A stretch of 33,133 nt of DNA from the NCBI RefSeq assembly GCF_001995175.1, contig NZ_MUKN01000043.1:1-33133 (forward strand). The letters run 5' to 3'. Origin of the DNA: Rathayibacter rhapontici (GTDB lineage: Bacteria > Actinomycetota > Actinomycetes > Actinomycetales > Microbacteriaceae). The position numbers and the translations under genes were made by a program. Under the pieces are notes generated by a model, which did no database searches, had not been told where the DNA came from, and was given only the letters and a program-made list of their open reading frames with translations. Shown here in pieces: positions 7,875 through 18,230 of this stretch. The first letter of the stretch is position 1. Each line of letters opens with the position of its first letter.

Positions 7875-7975
7875 CTGCAGATCGAGTAGCGCGCGGAGCG
7901 CGCGTATCGAGATCCGCGACGTCCCGGGAGTGCGTGGGTCTCGATGCGCCCCTGCCGAGCTGCTCGGCCGGCAAG
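7875..7975. repeat. REP-like imperfect palindrome, copy 1
   Basis: The left arm GATCGAGTAGCGCGCGGAGC and a degenerate right arm (TCTCGATGCGCCCCTG then TGCTCGGCCGGCA) form an imperfect palindrome of about 100 bp. It is the first of three related copies between the DUF808 gene and the GH30 terminator. Similar elements with a TCGAGTAGC core are scattered through intergenic regions of Microbacteriaceae (recalled, not searched). The gap 7850-8474 holds no gene I can support. Confidence 0.7.
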
Positions 7976-8108
7976 GTCGGCGTGTGGAACCTCGGCCGAG
8001 AGTGCTGCTCAGCCACGATGGTGACTGACGGGTGCTCCTGGCTGACGTTCTGCGGCGGCAGTGCTCGGCCGCGCGCCGCGCTCCTCTCCGGGCGTCCGGG
8101 TGCTCCTC

Positions 8109-8206
8109 TGCTGATCGAGTAGCGCGCGGGGCGCGCGTAGCGAGATCCGCGAAGTCTCGGAGTGGGTGGGTCTCGATACGCCCCTGCGGGGCTACTCGAC
8201 CAGCAA
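8109..8206. repeat. REP-like imperfect palindrome, copy 2
   Basis: This is the best-preserved copy. TGCTGATCGAGTAGCGCGC opens it, and TCTCGATACGCCCCTGCGG followed by GGCTACTCGACCAGCA closes it, giving two arms that pair over the outer 15 bp or so. Confidence 0.75.
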
Positions 8207-8248
8207 GGGGGACGGCGGCCGGCGTCCCCGGAACGCGGCCCGCCGCTC

Positions 8249-8263
8249 ATCCGTCACGAACGG
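8249..8263. repeat. Isolated copy of the RT-array motif
   Basis: ATCCGTCACGAACGG is identical in form to the repeated motif of the array at 16466-17209, about 8 kb away. A weak inverted partner (TTCGACGGAT) lies some 40 bp further on. The motif is therefore not confined to the reverse-transcriptase locus. Confidence 0.65.
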
Positions 8264-8378
8264 CCGTCCCGGGAGCTGAGGGGCGGCCCTCTTCGACGGA
8301 TCAGTCGGCGCCCGCCGACGATGTGCGCTCGCGCGCCACCTCTATGCGGTGAACGGCGCTCCACGTCGGGTGCTCCTC

Positions 8379-8463
8379 TGCAGATCGAGTAGCGCGCGTA
8401 TCGCGATCCGCGATGTCCGGGAGGGGAGTCTCGAGACGCCCCTCCGGGGCCACTCGACCTGCG
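8379..8463. repeat. REP-like imperfect palindrome, copy 3
   Basis: This is a shorter copy: GCAGATCGAGTAGCGCGCG on the left, and TCTCGAGACGCCCCTCCGG with CCACTCGACCTGC on the right. It ends 12 bp before the hairpin that terminates the GH30 gene. Confidence 0.7.
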
Positions 8464-12351: not shown

Positions 12352-12412
12352 CGCGAGATGCCACTGCGGTACAGGTACTCCGGCGTATCGCGAACCGGAG
12401 TGGCATCTCGCG
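12352..12412 (-). terminator. Inverted repeat after the ArsR gene
   Basis: A 14-bp inverted repeat (12352-12365 with 12399-12412, arm CGCGAGATGCCACT) encloses 33 nt that also contain partial pairing. It starts 15 nt past the stop of the ArsR gene and probably ends the metal-efflux transcript before the GH30 promoter. Confidence 0.55.
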
Positions 12413-14887: not shown

Positions 14888-15070
14888 GCCGCCAGCCTGC
14901 GGGGCGGGAGGGCGCGGCGCAAGGACCTCGAGGGGGCACCGGGGTGAACAGCGGGCCGCTCCCTCCGGGCGACCTGTCGGGAAGTGCGGGCGCTGAGCCG
15001 CGCGGAGCGCGGGCGGGTGCCTGCGGTGCGGTGCCTGGTCGATCCACGTGCCCCGGGGTGACCCCGGAGA

Positions 15071-15095
15071 GGACGGTGCAGCTCGTGCATCGTCC
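15071..15095 (+). other. Hairpin in the RT leader (candidate retron ncRNA part)
   Basis: GGACGGTGCA (15071-15080) pairs with TGCATCGTCC (15086-15095) through ten pairs including one G-U, around the loop GCTCG. It lies 55-79 bp before the RT start codon, where retron msr-msd RNAs usually end. The boundaries of any such RNA and a priming guanosine were not identified. Confidence 0.35.
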
Positions 15096-15121
15096 GCCTC
15101 GCCCGGAGGGAGCGGTGCCGC

Positions 15122-15135
15122 CCAGCCTAGGCTGG
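15122..15135. promoter_or_regulatory. Perfect palindrome overlapping the presumed RT promoter
   Basis: CCAGCCTAGGCTGG is a perfect 14-bp palindrome ending 14 bp before the RT ATG. It contains TAGGCT (15128-15133), a plausible -10 element, so it may be an operator or a small transcript-start structure. No good -35 is visible. Confidence 0.45.
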
Positions 15136-15149
15136 TGCAGGGGGTTCGC

Positions 15150-16448
15150 ATGCGAGGTCGGGACGCGCTCGTCGAGGCGCTCGTGCACGCGTTCCTCGGG
15201 GCGGAGTGGACGCACGACGCCCTGCGCGCCGCGGCGGCCGACTCCCTCGGCGCCCGACGGCGCTGGCTCGGACCGCTCGTCACGCGCGTGCTCGTCGCGT
15301 TCCCGCATCCGCCGGTCGACGCCCCGCGCGAGCTCGGGTGCTGCATCGCGGCGCTGCTGCCGGACAGGGCGCAGCCCGTCGTCGCGCACCTCGCGCCGGT
15401 CGCCGCGAGCGCGGCCTCGTCCTCGTCCCCGGTGCCCCGGATCGACGGGATCGCCGATCTCGCCGCGCTGCTCGGGCTGAGCGTCGACGCCCTGGACGGG
15501 CTCGCCGACGCGGGGTCCTGGAACCGCCGGGCTCCGGAGGGGCGGCTGCAGCACTACGACCACGTCTGGCGGGAGCGGCCGGGCAGGGTCGCGCGCCTGC
15601 TCGAGGTGCCGCGCGGTCGCCTGCGCGCGGTGCAGCGCACGGTGCTGGACGAGATCGTGGGCCTGGCGCCGGTGCATCCCGCCGCGCACGGATTCGTGCC
15701 CGGTCGCAGCGCCATCACCGGGGCGGCGGAGCACGTCGGCAGCGCGGTCGTGGTGACGCTGGATCTGCAGCGGTTCTTCGCGCAGGTGACGGCGCCGCGG
15801 GTGTTCGGGCTGCTCCGCCGGGAGGGGCTTCCGGAGGCGGTCGCCTACACGCTGACGGGGCTCTGCACGCACGCGGTGCCGGTCGCGGTGCTGCGGCGGC
15901 TGCCCGAGGGCGGGTCCCCGGAGGAGCGCGCGGGGCTGCGGCGGGCGCTGACCCTGCCGCACCTGCCGCAGGGCGCGCCGACGTCGCCGGCGCTCGCCAA
16001 TCTGGCGCTGCGTCGCCTGGATGCGCGGCTCACCGGGTACGCCGAGGCGGCTGGCGCGCGCTACACCCGGTACGCCGACGACCTCACGTTCAGCGGCGAC
16101 GAGCACTTCGCGCGGCGGGCCGAGGCGTTCGCGCGCGGGGTGCAGCGGGTGGTGGAGGACGCGGGGTACGCGGTGAATCCGCGGAAGACGCGGATCCGGC
16201 GGGCGTCGGTGCGGCAGAGCGTGACCGGAGTGGTGGTCAACGTGCGGCCGAACGTGCGGCGGGCCGACGTGGACCGGCTGCACGCGATCCTGCACAACTG
16301 CGCGGTGCACGGGCCGGCGGGGCAGAACCGCGCGGGGGTCGAGGACTTCCGGGCGCACCTGCTGGGGCGGATCGCGTGGGTGGCGGCGGTGAATCCGGGT
16401 CGCGGGGCGTCGCTCCGGGCGGTGTTCGACCGGATCGAGTGGAGCTGA
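15150..16448 (+). CDS. Retron-type reverse transcriptase
   Basis: This RNA-directed DNA polymerase has about 432 residues. The N-terminal 95 or so residues form an Arg/Trp-containing extension (RRRWLGPLVTRVLVAF), then a short Ser/Ala linker, then the polymerase from about 100. Motifs run in order: HGFVPGRSAIT; GAAEHVG at 191-197, a variant of the retron NAxxH element; LDLQRFF with the first metal Asp at 205; LPQGAPTSPALANL at 272-285; the catalytic YADD at 308-311; NPRKTRI; and VTG at 358-360, the retron-specific motif. The ATG at 15150 has GCAGGGGG before it. No transposition or diversity-generating partner is present. A 744-bp repeat array starts 17 bp after the stop codon, and a nuclease-like gene follows. 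An antiphage retron is likely, but its RNA is unproven. Confidence 0.9.
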   Translation: MRGRDALVEALVHAFLGAEWTHDALRAAAADSLGARRRWLGPLVTRVLVAFPHPPVDAPRELGCCIAALLPDRAQPVVAHLAPVAASAASSSSPVPRIDGIADLAALLGLSVDALDGLADAGSWNRRAPEGRLQHYDHVWRERPGRVARLLEVPRGRLRAVQRTVLDEIVGLAPVHPAAHGFVPGRSAITGAAEHVGSAVVVTLDLQRFFAQVTAPRVFGLLRREGLPEAVAYTLTGLCTHAVPVAVLRRLPEGGSPEERAGLRRALTLPHLPQGAPTSPALANLALRRLDARLTGYAEAAGARYTRYADDLTFSGDEHFARRAEAFARGVQRVVEDAGYAVNPRKTRIRRASVRQSVTGVVVNVRPNVRRADVDRLHAILHNCAVHGPAGQNRAGVEDFRAHLLGRIAWVAAVNPGRGASLRAVFDRIEWS

Positions 16449-16465
16449 GGGGCGCGCGCCGCGCT

Positions 16466-17209
16466 GATCCGTCGCAGAGGGCCGACCGCGGGGTGAGGTG
16501 CTGACCCGTCGCGAACGGCTGTTGTGCTCACTGCAGGCGGACGCGATCCGTCGCGAACGGCCGTCGCGTGGCGGTTTGGCCGGCCGTTCGTGACGGATGA
16601 CCGCGCCCTGCGAGCGTGTGTGGCTGATCCGTCGCGAATGGCTGCTGCTCTCACTGCTGGGTAAACGATTCGTCGCGAACGGCCGTCGCGTGGCAGTCGG
16701 TCCGACCGTTCGTGACGGGTGACCGCACGTTCCCTGCGTGCGGGTGGCGATCCGTCGCGAATGGCCGGTGCGCTCGCTGAAGGGGAGGTGATCCGTCGCG
16801 TACGGCCGTTGCGCGGCGGTATGGCAGACCGTTGGTGACGGATGACCGCACCCGTCCGCGTGCGGGTGGCCGATTCGTCGGGGATGGCTGTTGCGCGCAC
16901 TGCTGGGAAGGTGATCCGTCGCGAAGGGCCGTTGCGTGGCGGTCGGGCCGACCGTTGGCGACGGATGACCGCACCCCTTCGCGCGTGGGTGGTCGATCCG
17001 TCGCGGACGGTCGTCGGCGGTTCTTCGGGGCAGCGATCCGTCGCCGATAGCCGACTCGGAGTCCGGCGGGCGGCCGCTCGTGACGGGTGACCGGTCTTCT
17101 CGCGGCCGGGTGACCGATCCGTCACGAACGGCAGGTGGGGTGCTGAGTGGGTCGTGATCCGTCGCGGATGGACGTTTCGGAGGCGGGTGGGCGGCCGTTC
17201 GTGACGGAT
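16466..17209. repeat. 123-bp tandem array of inverted/direct motifs after the RT gene
   Basis: About 18 copies of a 15-16-bp motif occur in this 843-bp gene-free stretch. Forward copies (GATCCGTCGCGAACGG and variants) start at 16503, 16545, 16626, 16667, 16749, 16790, 16872, 16913, 16995, 17035, 17116 and 17156, plus a degenerate one at 16466. Inverted copies (CCGTTCGTGACGGAT) start at 16584, 16706, 16829, 16952, 17074 and 17195. The order is forward-forward-inverted, with steps of 39-43 bp. The unit is 123 bp four times in succession, then 121. Each inverted copy can pair with either neighbour. For example 16706-16720 pairs with 16750-16764 with no mismatch, only three G-U pairs, around an inner 7-bp stem. 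One motif copy also lies at 8249-8263. Confidence 0.85.
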
Positions 17210-17291
17210 CGGCGAAGCGCGGGGGCTGTGGAGAACGGTGGGGGCCTGTGGACAGCGGTTCGAGAGGTGACGGGCACGGCAGTGTGTGCGC

Positions 17292-18230
17292 ATGCCGAGC
17301 CCGTCCCCGCTTCCCCTGGTCCTCCGAGACACGTCCTTCACCGTCGCCGCGGCGCGAGCTGAGGGGGTCGGGCGGGGGCGCCTGCGCCGGAATGATCTCG
17401 TCGCTCCTTTCCACGGAGCGCGCAGCCCTGCGGCCGACCTCGATCCGAGGCGGCGGGCGGAGGCGCTGCTCGCGCTGCTCGGGCCGGGCGCCGTGCTGAG
17501 TCACCTGACCGCTGCGCGGCTGTGGCCGCTCGAGCTGCCGGACGCCGCTCCGGAGGAAGGGCTGCACGTGAGCGTCCGAGCGCCGGCACGGGCACCGCGA
17601 CGTCCCCGAGTCGTCGGGCACGCGATCAGCGACCCGCTCGTCCGACGGACCGTGCGCTGGGGACTGCCCATGACGGATCCGGCCTCGCTCTGGTGTCATC
17701 TCGGCGCGCTGCTCGAGCTCGACGACCTCGTCGCGGTCGGCGACGCTCTCGTGCGCGTCCCGGTCCGCGAGGAGGACGGTGATCCTCGGCCGTGGGTGAC
17801 GCTGCGCGAACTCACCGCCCGCTCGTTGCGCTTCGAGGGGAGGGGTGCGGTGCAGGTGAGACGGGCGATCGACCTGGTGCGCGACGGGGCCGACTCGCGG
17901 CAGGAGACGCGCTTCCGGCTCGCCTGCATCCGGGCGGGACTGCCGGAGCCGCAGCTGCAGGTTCCGATCCGCTTCCCGTCCGGGCTGCTCGCGGGCTACG
18001 CGGACGGCTGGTACGAGCACGAGAGGGTGGCGTGGGAGTACAAGGGCGACGGGCATCGCACGAGCGACCGGCGGTTCGCTCGGGACATCGGCCGCTACGA
18101 CGACTTCGCCTCACTGGGGATCAGGACCGTGCGGATCGTGAAGTCCGAGTTCCTCCCGTACCCCGAGCGGTCGGTCGAGCGCCTGCGGCGTGCGCTCGCG
18201 GAGCGCGCGGGCGGCGGTGACCGTCGGTGA
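17292..18230 (+). CDS. AbiEi-like / restriction-endonuclease-fold protein
   Basis: This protein has about 312 residues. The N-terminal part resembles the AbiEi antitoxin-type winged helix (GRLRRNDLVAPFHGAR, LLALLGPGAVLSHLTAARLW). The C-terminal part, from about 200, resembles the DUF559/Vsr endonuclease-like fold: SRQETRFRL with Glu205, a strand ending GYADGW (Asp238), AWEYKGDGHR (Glu249, Lys251), then FARDIGRYDDFASLGIRTVRI. The Asp-x10-Glu-x-Lys pattern fits a PD-(D/E)XK active site. Such proteins are frequent in actinobacteria, usually without known function. The start may be the ATG at 17292 or a GTG at 17286. Its position directly behind the RT and repeat array makes it a candidate partner, but the family is common enough for this to be chance. 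Confidence 0.75.
   Translation: MPSPSPLPLVLRDTSFTVAAARAEGVGRGRLRRNDLVAPFHGARSPAADLDPRRRAEALLALLGPGAVLSHLTAARLWPLELPDAAPEEGLHVSVRAPARAPRRPRVVGHAISDPLVRRTVRWGLPMTDPASLWCHLGALLELDDLVAVGDALVRVPVREEDGDPRPWVTLRELTARSLRFEGRGAVQVRRAIDLVRDGADSRQETRFRLACIRAGLPEPQLQVPIRFPSGLLAGYADGWYEHERVAWEYKGDGHRTSDRRFARDIGRYDDFASLGIRTVRIVKSEFLPYPERSVERLRRALAERAGGGDRR

What the first reader, a model, noticed from the sequence alone, without database searches (positions are those of the whole stretch)
15150..17209. Retron-type RT followed by a 744-bp structured repeat array
The RT has the VTG motif, a GAAEH variant of NAxxH, and YADD, so it belongs with retrons. Starting 17 bp after its stop codon lies an array of about 18 copies of a 15-16-bp motif. 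Known retrons have one msr-msd RNA, normally upstream of the RT. A tandem array of hairpin-forming units directly downstream would be a new arrangement if transcribed: it could be a multi-copy template or RNA partner. The alternative is that a dispersed genomic repeat expanded there, since one motif copy exists at 8249-8263.
Basis: partly seen in the sequence, partly recalled or inferred. Interest (0 to 1): 0.85.

Follow-up and report, generated by a model that had tools for sequence, protein, structure and literature searches.

The report
Nuclease-linked palindrome array beside a retron
The repeat array next to this bacterial reverse transcriptase does not seem to be part of the retron; it is made of DNA palindromes that are scattered through the genome and that appear to belong to the nuclease-like gene on its other side, one of a group of such genes that often sit among palindromes of their own.

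Summary
The RT and the array are real, but they do not belong together. The array is six 55-bp DNA palindromes at 121-123-bp spacing plus half-sites. The same palindrome is dispersed in this genome and was found in 15 of 15 genomes of the genus, three of them without a detected RT. A sister genome with a 97% identical RT lacks the array. The RT has a conserved msr-msd-like block just upstream; its relatives in other genera show strong compensatory change.

About 75 bp after the array starts a DUF559/MTES_1575 nuclease-like gene (17286-18230). Its homologues are often bracketed by palindromes: 30 of 59 genes against 2 of 171 control genes; own flanks match in 49 of 86, unrelated pairs in 5 of 6564; 16 of 26 in a further set. 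The window's own copy has palindromes upstream only. Three palindrome families are shown dispersed.

Best reading: a REPtron-like module whose enzyme is a Vsr/DUF559-type nuclease instead of a Y1 transposase. That the protein acts on the palindromes is inferred. In nine genomes the retron RNA block is inverted relative to the RT.

The parts
16466..17210 (+). Array: six 55-bp palindromes (16545-16599, 16667-16721, 16790-16844, 16913-16967, 17035-17089, 17156-17210) at 121-123-bp spacing, with extra direct half-sites
17286..18230 (+). 314-aa nuclease-like gene, proposed partner of the palindromes: C-terminal MTES_1575/DUF559 type, weak AbiEi-like match in the N-terminal part
   Evidence: Pfam MTES_1575 21.9 bits, below the curated cut-off of 38.2; PADLOC AbiEi E 3.9e-4; in 60 homologues MTES_1575 matches 51, DUF559 36, AbiEi_4 1; profile match to PDB 3hrl, E 4.7e-4
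8248..8302 (.). Single copy of the same palindrome; absent at the matching place in sister genome G199
15150..16448 (+). Retron-type reverse transcriptase (PADLOC RT_other / RT_outgroup); not part of the palindrome module
14958..15113 (.). msr-msd-like block: arms 14958-14972 and 15099-15113 (GCTCCCTCCGGGCGA / TCGCCCGGAGGGAGC). Inverted relative to the RT when compared with other genera, so the RNA strand is open
15122..15135 (.). Perfect palindrome CCAGCCTAGGCTGG, kept in nine of nine genus sequences; possible two-way -10 element (inference)

Best explanation
The array is a local expansion of a dispersed, mostly intergenic 55-bp DNA palindrome. It belongs functionally to the nuclease-like gene that starts about 75 bp after it, not to the RT. 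Shown: homologues of this gene are often bracketed by palindromes, each protein group has its own palindrome sequence, and three such palindrome families are dispersed in the genomes or replicons that carry their gene. Inferred: the protein recognises its palindrome and cuts or nicks it (in duplex or as an extruded hairpin on single-stranded DNA during replication), and this has copied palindromes to new places and kept gene and palindrome sequences co-evolving, as a RAYT does with REPs, but with a Vsr/DUF559-type nuclease in place of a Y1 transposase. Unequal recombination between copies then explains the tandem array and its length differences between sister genomes. The insertion beside the retron is incidental. 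The RT uses its own upstream msr-msd-like RNA.
For: Palindrome at many loci without RT; no link to RT presence outside the genus: 2 of 20 RT-carrying genomes against 22 of 175 without. Array and gene together absent from sister G199, where 45 bp with a decayed palindrome stand in place of 1908 bp. Motif within 1.5 kb of 7 of 7 close orthologue loci (65-100% identity) and of 0 of 23 loci of more distant homologues. Flank repeats 30 of 59 against 2 of 171 control genes. Own up/down flank match at score 18 or more 49 of 86 against 5 of 6564 unrelated pairs, rising with protein identity. Further set 16 of 26, including Arthrobacter and Nocardioides. Second family at fixed 46-bp spacing, 5 to 194 half-sites per genome against 0 to 2 in the control. 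Third family: 22 places in one Arthrobacter plasmid, found from its gene. Copy number higher where the cognate gene is present: 41.7 against 15.6, p 0.010, and 113 against 29.7, p 0.034, without correction for kinship. E207, D240, E251 and H257 kept in 81 to 84 of 86 homologues.
Against: The window's own gene has palindromes upstream only and fails the up/down flank test (score 10), and it alone of 86 has Lys at position 253, where most have Asp or Glu. 29 of 59 homologues do not pass the flank test at 16. Two of the 30 that pass, L163 and L164, score through another palindrome family. No clean empty site was found among 209 dyads in 629 kb of compared stretches, and three single copies examined keep their place in G199, so recent movement is not shown. 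Genomes without a cognate gene also carry copies, for example G199 with 51 matches. No common core between palindromes of different groups was found. The structure model was unusable (mean pLDDT 32.7). The AbiEi-like match is weak.
Confidence: 0.57

Rival explanations
1. Regulator and operators: the protein binds its palindromes to control its own gene and a set of other genes; the palindromes spread by other means.
For: An upstream palindrome about 90 to 170 bp before the start is frequent; weak AbiEi-like match. That AbiEi binds inverted repeats in its own promoter is recalled, not looked up.
Against: The downstream palindrome and tandem arrays are not expected of an operator; nuclease-type residues are kept.
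Confidence: 0.18
2. Hitch-hiking: palindromes are ordinary REP-like repeats mobilised by something else, and the nuclease genes are inserted or kept next to them, for example as homing-type endonucleases that cut palindromes.
For: The nuclease domain resembles DUF559/Vsr-type proteins, which include EDxHD homing endonucleases (recalled; the term was seen only in an abstract listing). The gene sits in at least four contexts in the genus. Palindromes occur in genomes without a cognate gene.
Against: Each protein group has its own palindrome and similarity follows protein identity. No Y1 transposase was found in the own genome at E 0.001 or better.
Confidence: 0.15
3. The array is the template or RNA partner of the retron RT.
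For: It starts 17 bp after the RT stop codon.
Against: Absent beside the 97% identical RT of G199. Of 106 RT loci examined only three, the window's included, had a tandem array of score 150 or more within 1 kb, each with another unit. No compensatory change. The RT has its own upstream block.
Confidence: 0.03
4. The palindromes are plain terminators or neutral repeats with no link to the nuclease gene.
For: Palindromes are common between genes here, and another dispersed family (GGTCTCGATACGC type) lies next to several copies.
Against: 2 of 171 control genes against 30 of 59; 5 of 6564 unrelated pairs against 49 of 86 own pairs.
Confidence: 0.07

Closest known systems
REPtron: REP palindromes with RAYT (TnpA-REP, Y1 HUH transposase)
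   Same: Palindromes bracket one gene and are dispersed as single copies and clusters; partner and palindrome differ together between lineages. REPtrons and TIRtrons as described in passages of PMC3733652.
   Different: The enzyme is a DUF559/MTES_1575 nuclease-like protein; no Y1_Tnp match in the own genome. Palindromes are about 45-60 bp, longer than the 20-40 bp given for REPs in the abstract of PMC3733652 (listing).
DUF559 / Vsr-like / MTES_1575 nuclease families
   Same: The protein matches these profiles.
   Different: No link with bracketing palindromes was found in print by searches.
Retron (PADLOC RT_outgroup / RT_other)
   Same: RT motifs and upstream msr-msd-like RNA.
   Different: In nine genomes of the window's genus the RNA block is inverted relative to the RT. 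No adjacent effector was identified.

Membership tests
REPtron / RAYT | Y1 (HUH) transposase gene in the module | tested here: not met
   PF01797 not found in the own genome at E 0.001 or better, though it rang in 5 of 14 control genomes; the bracketed gene matches MTES_1575/DUF559 instead
REPtron / RAYT | Palindromes on both sides of the gene | tested here: inconclusive
   Met for many homologues; the window's copy has them upstream only
REPtron / RAYT | Palindromes dispersed in the genome | tested here: met
   four of four sites in 150 kb of an annotated plasmid lie between annotated genes, two of them beside the gene
DUF559 / MTES_1575 nuclease | Profile match of the protein | tested here: inconclusive
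   Window protein E 1.9e-4 but 21.9 bits, under the cut-off of 38.2; 51 of 60 homologues match at E 0.01 or better
DUF559 / MTES_1575 nuclease | Nuclease activity | not testable with these tools
   Candidate residues kept in 81 to 84 of 86; no activity known
Retron | RT with retron-type motifs | tested here: met
Retron | msr-msd RNA with a1/a2 arms next to the RT | tested here: met
   Window block folds with both arms paired, z -3.43; relatives: 49 pairs, 32 with double change against 23.2 in shuffles, 0 of 500 as high. Which strand is transcribed in the window is open
Retron | msDNA made by the RT | not testable with these tools
   needs experiment
Retron | Tandem array as RNA partner | tested here: not met

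The most novel reading that the evidence does not exclude
A class of mobile palindromes in Actinomycetota, spread by a Vsr/DUF559-type nuclease that recognises and cuts its own palindrome: many parallel enzyme-palindrome pairs (24 protein groups under 55% identity, one of them a broken gene), each with its own sequence code. It would be a second solution, independent of RAYTs, to how genomes acquire dispersed palindromes.
Probability: 0.4. Interest if true: 0.85.

Novelty: new variant of a known kind. Interest (0 to 1): 0.73.

Why it matters
Many bacterial genomes carry dispersed palindromes with no known mobiliser; PMC3733652 says of one large REP group that it apparently lacks a dedicated transposase (passage seen). 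Here a candidate partner gene can be named for palindromes of a whole bacterial family and beyond, in a way that makes the question testable: each nuclease gene predicts the sequence of its own palindrome, and that prediction worked on an Arthrobacter plasmid. If the protein acts on the palindrome, it is a set of ready-made, sequence-specific hairpin or palindrome nucleases. Separately, a retron RNA inverted relative to its RT would show that the usual order is not essential.

Tried and rejected
Array as an RNA structure: rejected, since pairing of the 55-bp unit is no better than in shuffles that keep column make-up. Array tied to the RT: rejected. RAYT as mobiliser: not found in the own genome. 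Direct proof of movement by empty sites: looked for among 209 dyads in 628,861 bp, no clean case; G000 against G199 gave three single copies kept in place and one absent. A common core shared by palindromes of different groups: top 5-mer count 7 against a shuffle maximum of 8. Strand of the inverted retron block by G-U against A-C pairs: contradictory and too few (5 A-C and 0 G-U; 11 G-U and 10 A-C). Structure prediction of the nuclease-like protein from one sequence: mean pLDDT 32.7, so no fold search was made. Viral scan with the nuclease alignment: not run, no stretch conserved enough. Rfam: no match in the window; in six RT loci only a tRNA and an msiK RNA. Papers on retron classification that I recalled are not held, so whether this retron RNA has been described elsewhere is not known.

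Rows dropped: identical or weak sequences from the retron RNA sets (48 gathered; 37 from other genera used; 33 in A8); one short fragment (L333) from the set; L254 for lack of flank. A3 contains one frame-shifted copy (L217), read in a single frame as it stands. Thresholds for flank scores were printed at several levels and not fixed beforehand. The set used 200-bp flanks and had no control genes of its own.

Full report
What is there. The RT at 15150-16448 is a retron-type enzyme: YADD, VTG and the GAAEH variant, best PADLOC matches RT_other (575.5 bits) and RT_outgroup (544.8 bits). From 16466 to 17210 lies the array. Laid out by half-sites it is six 55-bp palindromes whose two arms start exactly 38 bp apart, spaced 121-123 bp, with further direct half-sites between them.

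The unit is a dispersed DNA palindrome. The half-site has 67 matches in the genome with up to two mismatches, against one for the control pattern; 54 of the 67 lie outside the window. In the fetched stretches many are whole palindromes, single or in local arrays with other spacings: of 66 arm pairs found, 43 have the 38-bp distance. Forty-two copies align without a gap. Their pairing is no better than in shuffles that keep the column make-up (83.0% against 83.8%; covariation 0.139 against 0.150, reached by 436 of 500). The symmetry is therefore that of a DNA site; nothing supports an RNA hairpin kept by compensatory change.

It is not tied to the RT. With a model of the palindrome, 15 of 15 genomes of the genus have matches, three of them (G200, G201, G208) without an RT at E 1e-20 or better; three genomes have only one or two matches (G206, G207, G209). 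Counts take both strands and at most 150 candidates a genome, so they are rough. In the family sample, outside the genus, 2 of 20 genomes with the RT and 22 of 175 without it have the palindrome. Of 106 RT loci, three (the window's, L115 and L080) have a tandem array of score 150 or more within 1 kb, with different units. The RT of sister genome G199 is 97% identical, and there 45 bp, containing a decayed palindrome, stand where the window has 1908 bp with the array and the next gene. The array at L205 is also of different length in the two genomes (about 500 against 217 bp).

The RT has its own RNA. Directly upstream, a block of about 176 bp is 93% identical in eight aligned sequences and was found in nine genomes. 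It folds with paired end arms, z -3.43. A profile of it finds relatives upstream of RTs in other genera: 40 loci kept from 102 sources, after taking out two duplicates and short hits. In 33 of these, 49 pairs show 94.8% paired cells against 77.8% in shuffles and 32 pairs with double changes against 23.2, none of 500 shuffles as high. The a1/a2 arms differ in sequence from genus to genus and stay complementary. This is what a retron msr-msd looks like; Rfam 15 had no match to it.

An inversion. In all 40 relatives the block has one orientation relative to the RT; in the nine genomes of the window's clade it has the other. The two genus members with divergent RTs (G206, G207) have the usual one. 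Which strand is transcribed in the window is open: pair counts disagree (no G-U, five A-C on the strand opposite to the RT; 11 and 10), while a TAGGCT palindrome at 15122-15135 sits at the place of the TAGCGT of other genera relative to the arm, which by eye suggests a divergent promoter. That -10 reading is mine, from recall of actinobacterial promoters.

The partner gene. About 75 bp after the array begins a 314-aa gene. The protein matches MTES_1575 weakly (under the curated cut-off); among 60 homologues MTES_1575 matches 51, DUF559 36 and AbiEi_4 1, and the profile matches an endonuclease-like protein of known structure, 3hrl, E 4.7e-4. E207 and D240 are kept in 84 of 86, E251 in 81 and H257 in 84; the window is the only one with Lys at 253. 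The palindrome motif lies within the 1.5-kb flanks of 7 of 7 close orthologue loci and of 0 of 23 loci of more distant homologues. In the genus the close orthologues sit in at least four contexts.

Homologues have palindromes of their own. Comparing the 260 bp before and after each gene, 30 of 59 homologues have a shared repeat of score 16 or more against 2 of 171 control genes of the same stretches (Fisher p 5.8e-19; at 18, 27 against 1). Two of the 30, L163 and L164, score through a different, common palindrome family, and the window's gene itself scores only 10. In 86 homologues the upstream flank matches the gene's own downstream flank at 18 or more in 49, but flanks of unrelated homologues (under 45% identity) in 5 of 6564; the share rises to about half for pairs above 60% identity. 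Typical layout: one palindrome about 90 to 170 bp before the start, one within about 40 bp of the stop. Examples: in G201 a gene at 624989-625837 between palindromes at 624848-624908 and 625848-625908; in G118 a gene at 3464137-3465024 between matches at 3464057 and 3465095 (G118 was chosen because it has such matches). In a further set of 26 loci, mostly of named genera including Arthrobacter, Subtercola, Frigoribacterium and Nocardioides, 16 pass at 16 (200-bp flanks, no control genes of its own).

Dispersal of three families. Besides the window's palindrome, a second family (CGCGAGATGCCACTT with arms 46 bp apart) is in 15 of 15 genus genomes with 5 to 194 half-sites against 0 to 2 for the control. 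A third was predicted from the flank of a gene on plasmid NZ_CP012477.1 of Arthrobacter sp. ERGS1:01: its palindrome has 22 places in that record, and one weak place (E 4 in the rows shown) in each of 15 others. In 150 kb of that plasmid four of four sites lie between annotated genes, which cover 87.6%; two of the four flank the gene, and the gene table is known to be incomplete. Copy numbers are higher where the cognate gene is present (R1: 7 against 8 genomes, 41.7 against 15.6; second family: 9 against 6, 113 against 29.7), without correction for kinship.

Mechanism. What is shown: bracketing, cognate matching, dispersal, array length change. What is inferred: that the protein binds and cuts the palindrome and has spread it. 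No insertion event was caught, and genomes without a close cognate gene also hold copies. The system works like REP/RAYT, but fails the defining feature, a Y1 transposase, so I do not file it as a REPtron. Five searches of the held library found no paper that links DUF559/MTES_1575 genes with bracketing palindromes; only listings were seen, and of PMC3733652 passages. The library holds open-licence papers only.

Noticed in passing
window 14958-15135; L150-L157: The msr-msd-like block of the retron is inverted relative to the RT in nine genomes of this clade, compared with 40 of 40 relatives in other genera and divergent genus members; possible divergent promoter between block and RT.
   Followed up: partly
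window 12352-12412: One copy of a second palindrome family (CGCGAGATGCCACTT arms); its likely partner gene in this genome is on C47 (L258), bracketed by the same family.
   Followed up: partly
window about 7902-8440; L196, L195: A third kind of dispersed palindrome (GGTCTCGATACGC ... type) lies next to copies of the array palindrome; no partner gene was identified for it.
   Followed up: no
G204 C1 3833096-3834000 (L217): A second copy of the nuclease-like gene in G204 is split over two frames, so it looks broken; palindromes lie beside it.
   Followed up: no
L170, L171, L177, L178, L180, L181: A group of homologues at 47-51% identity to the window protein shows no shared flank repeat; it may have lost or never had palindromes.
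   Followed up: no
L042 (WNZI01000030.1): A contig labelled Vibrio cholerae carries an RT and RNA block very like those of Arthrobacter agilis; the label or the assembly may be wrong.
   Followed up: no
   Followed up: partly
G208 C99 (L211): G208 has the nuclease-like gene at the same place as the window by its right-hand side, but the contig ends 229 bp upstream and no RT was found in that genome.
   Followed up: no
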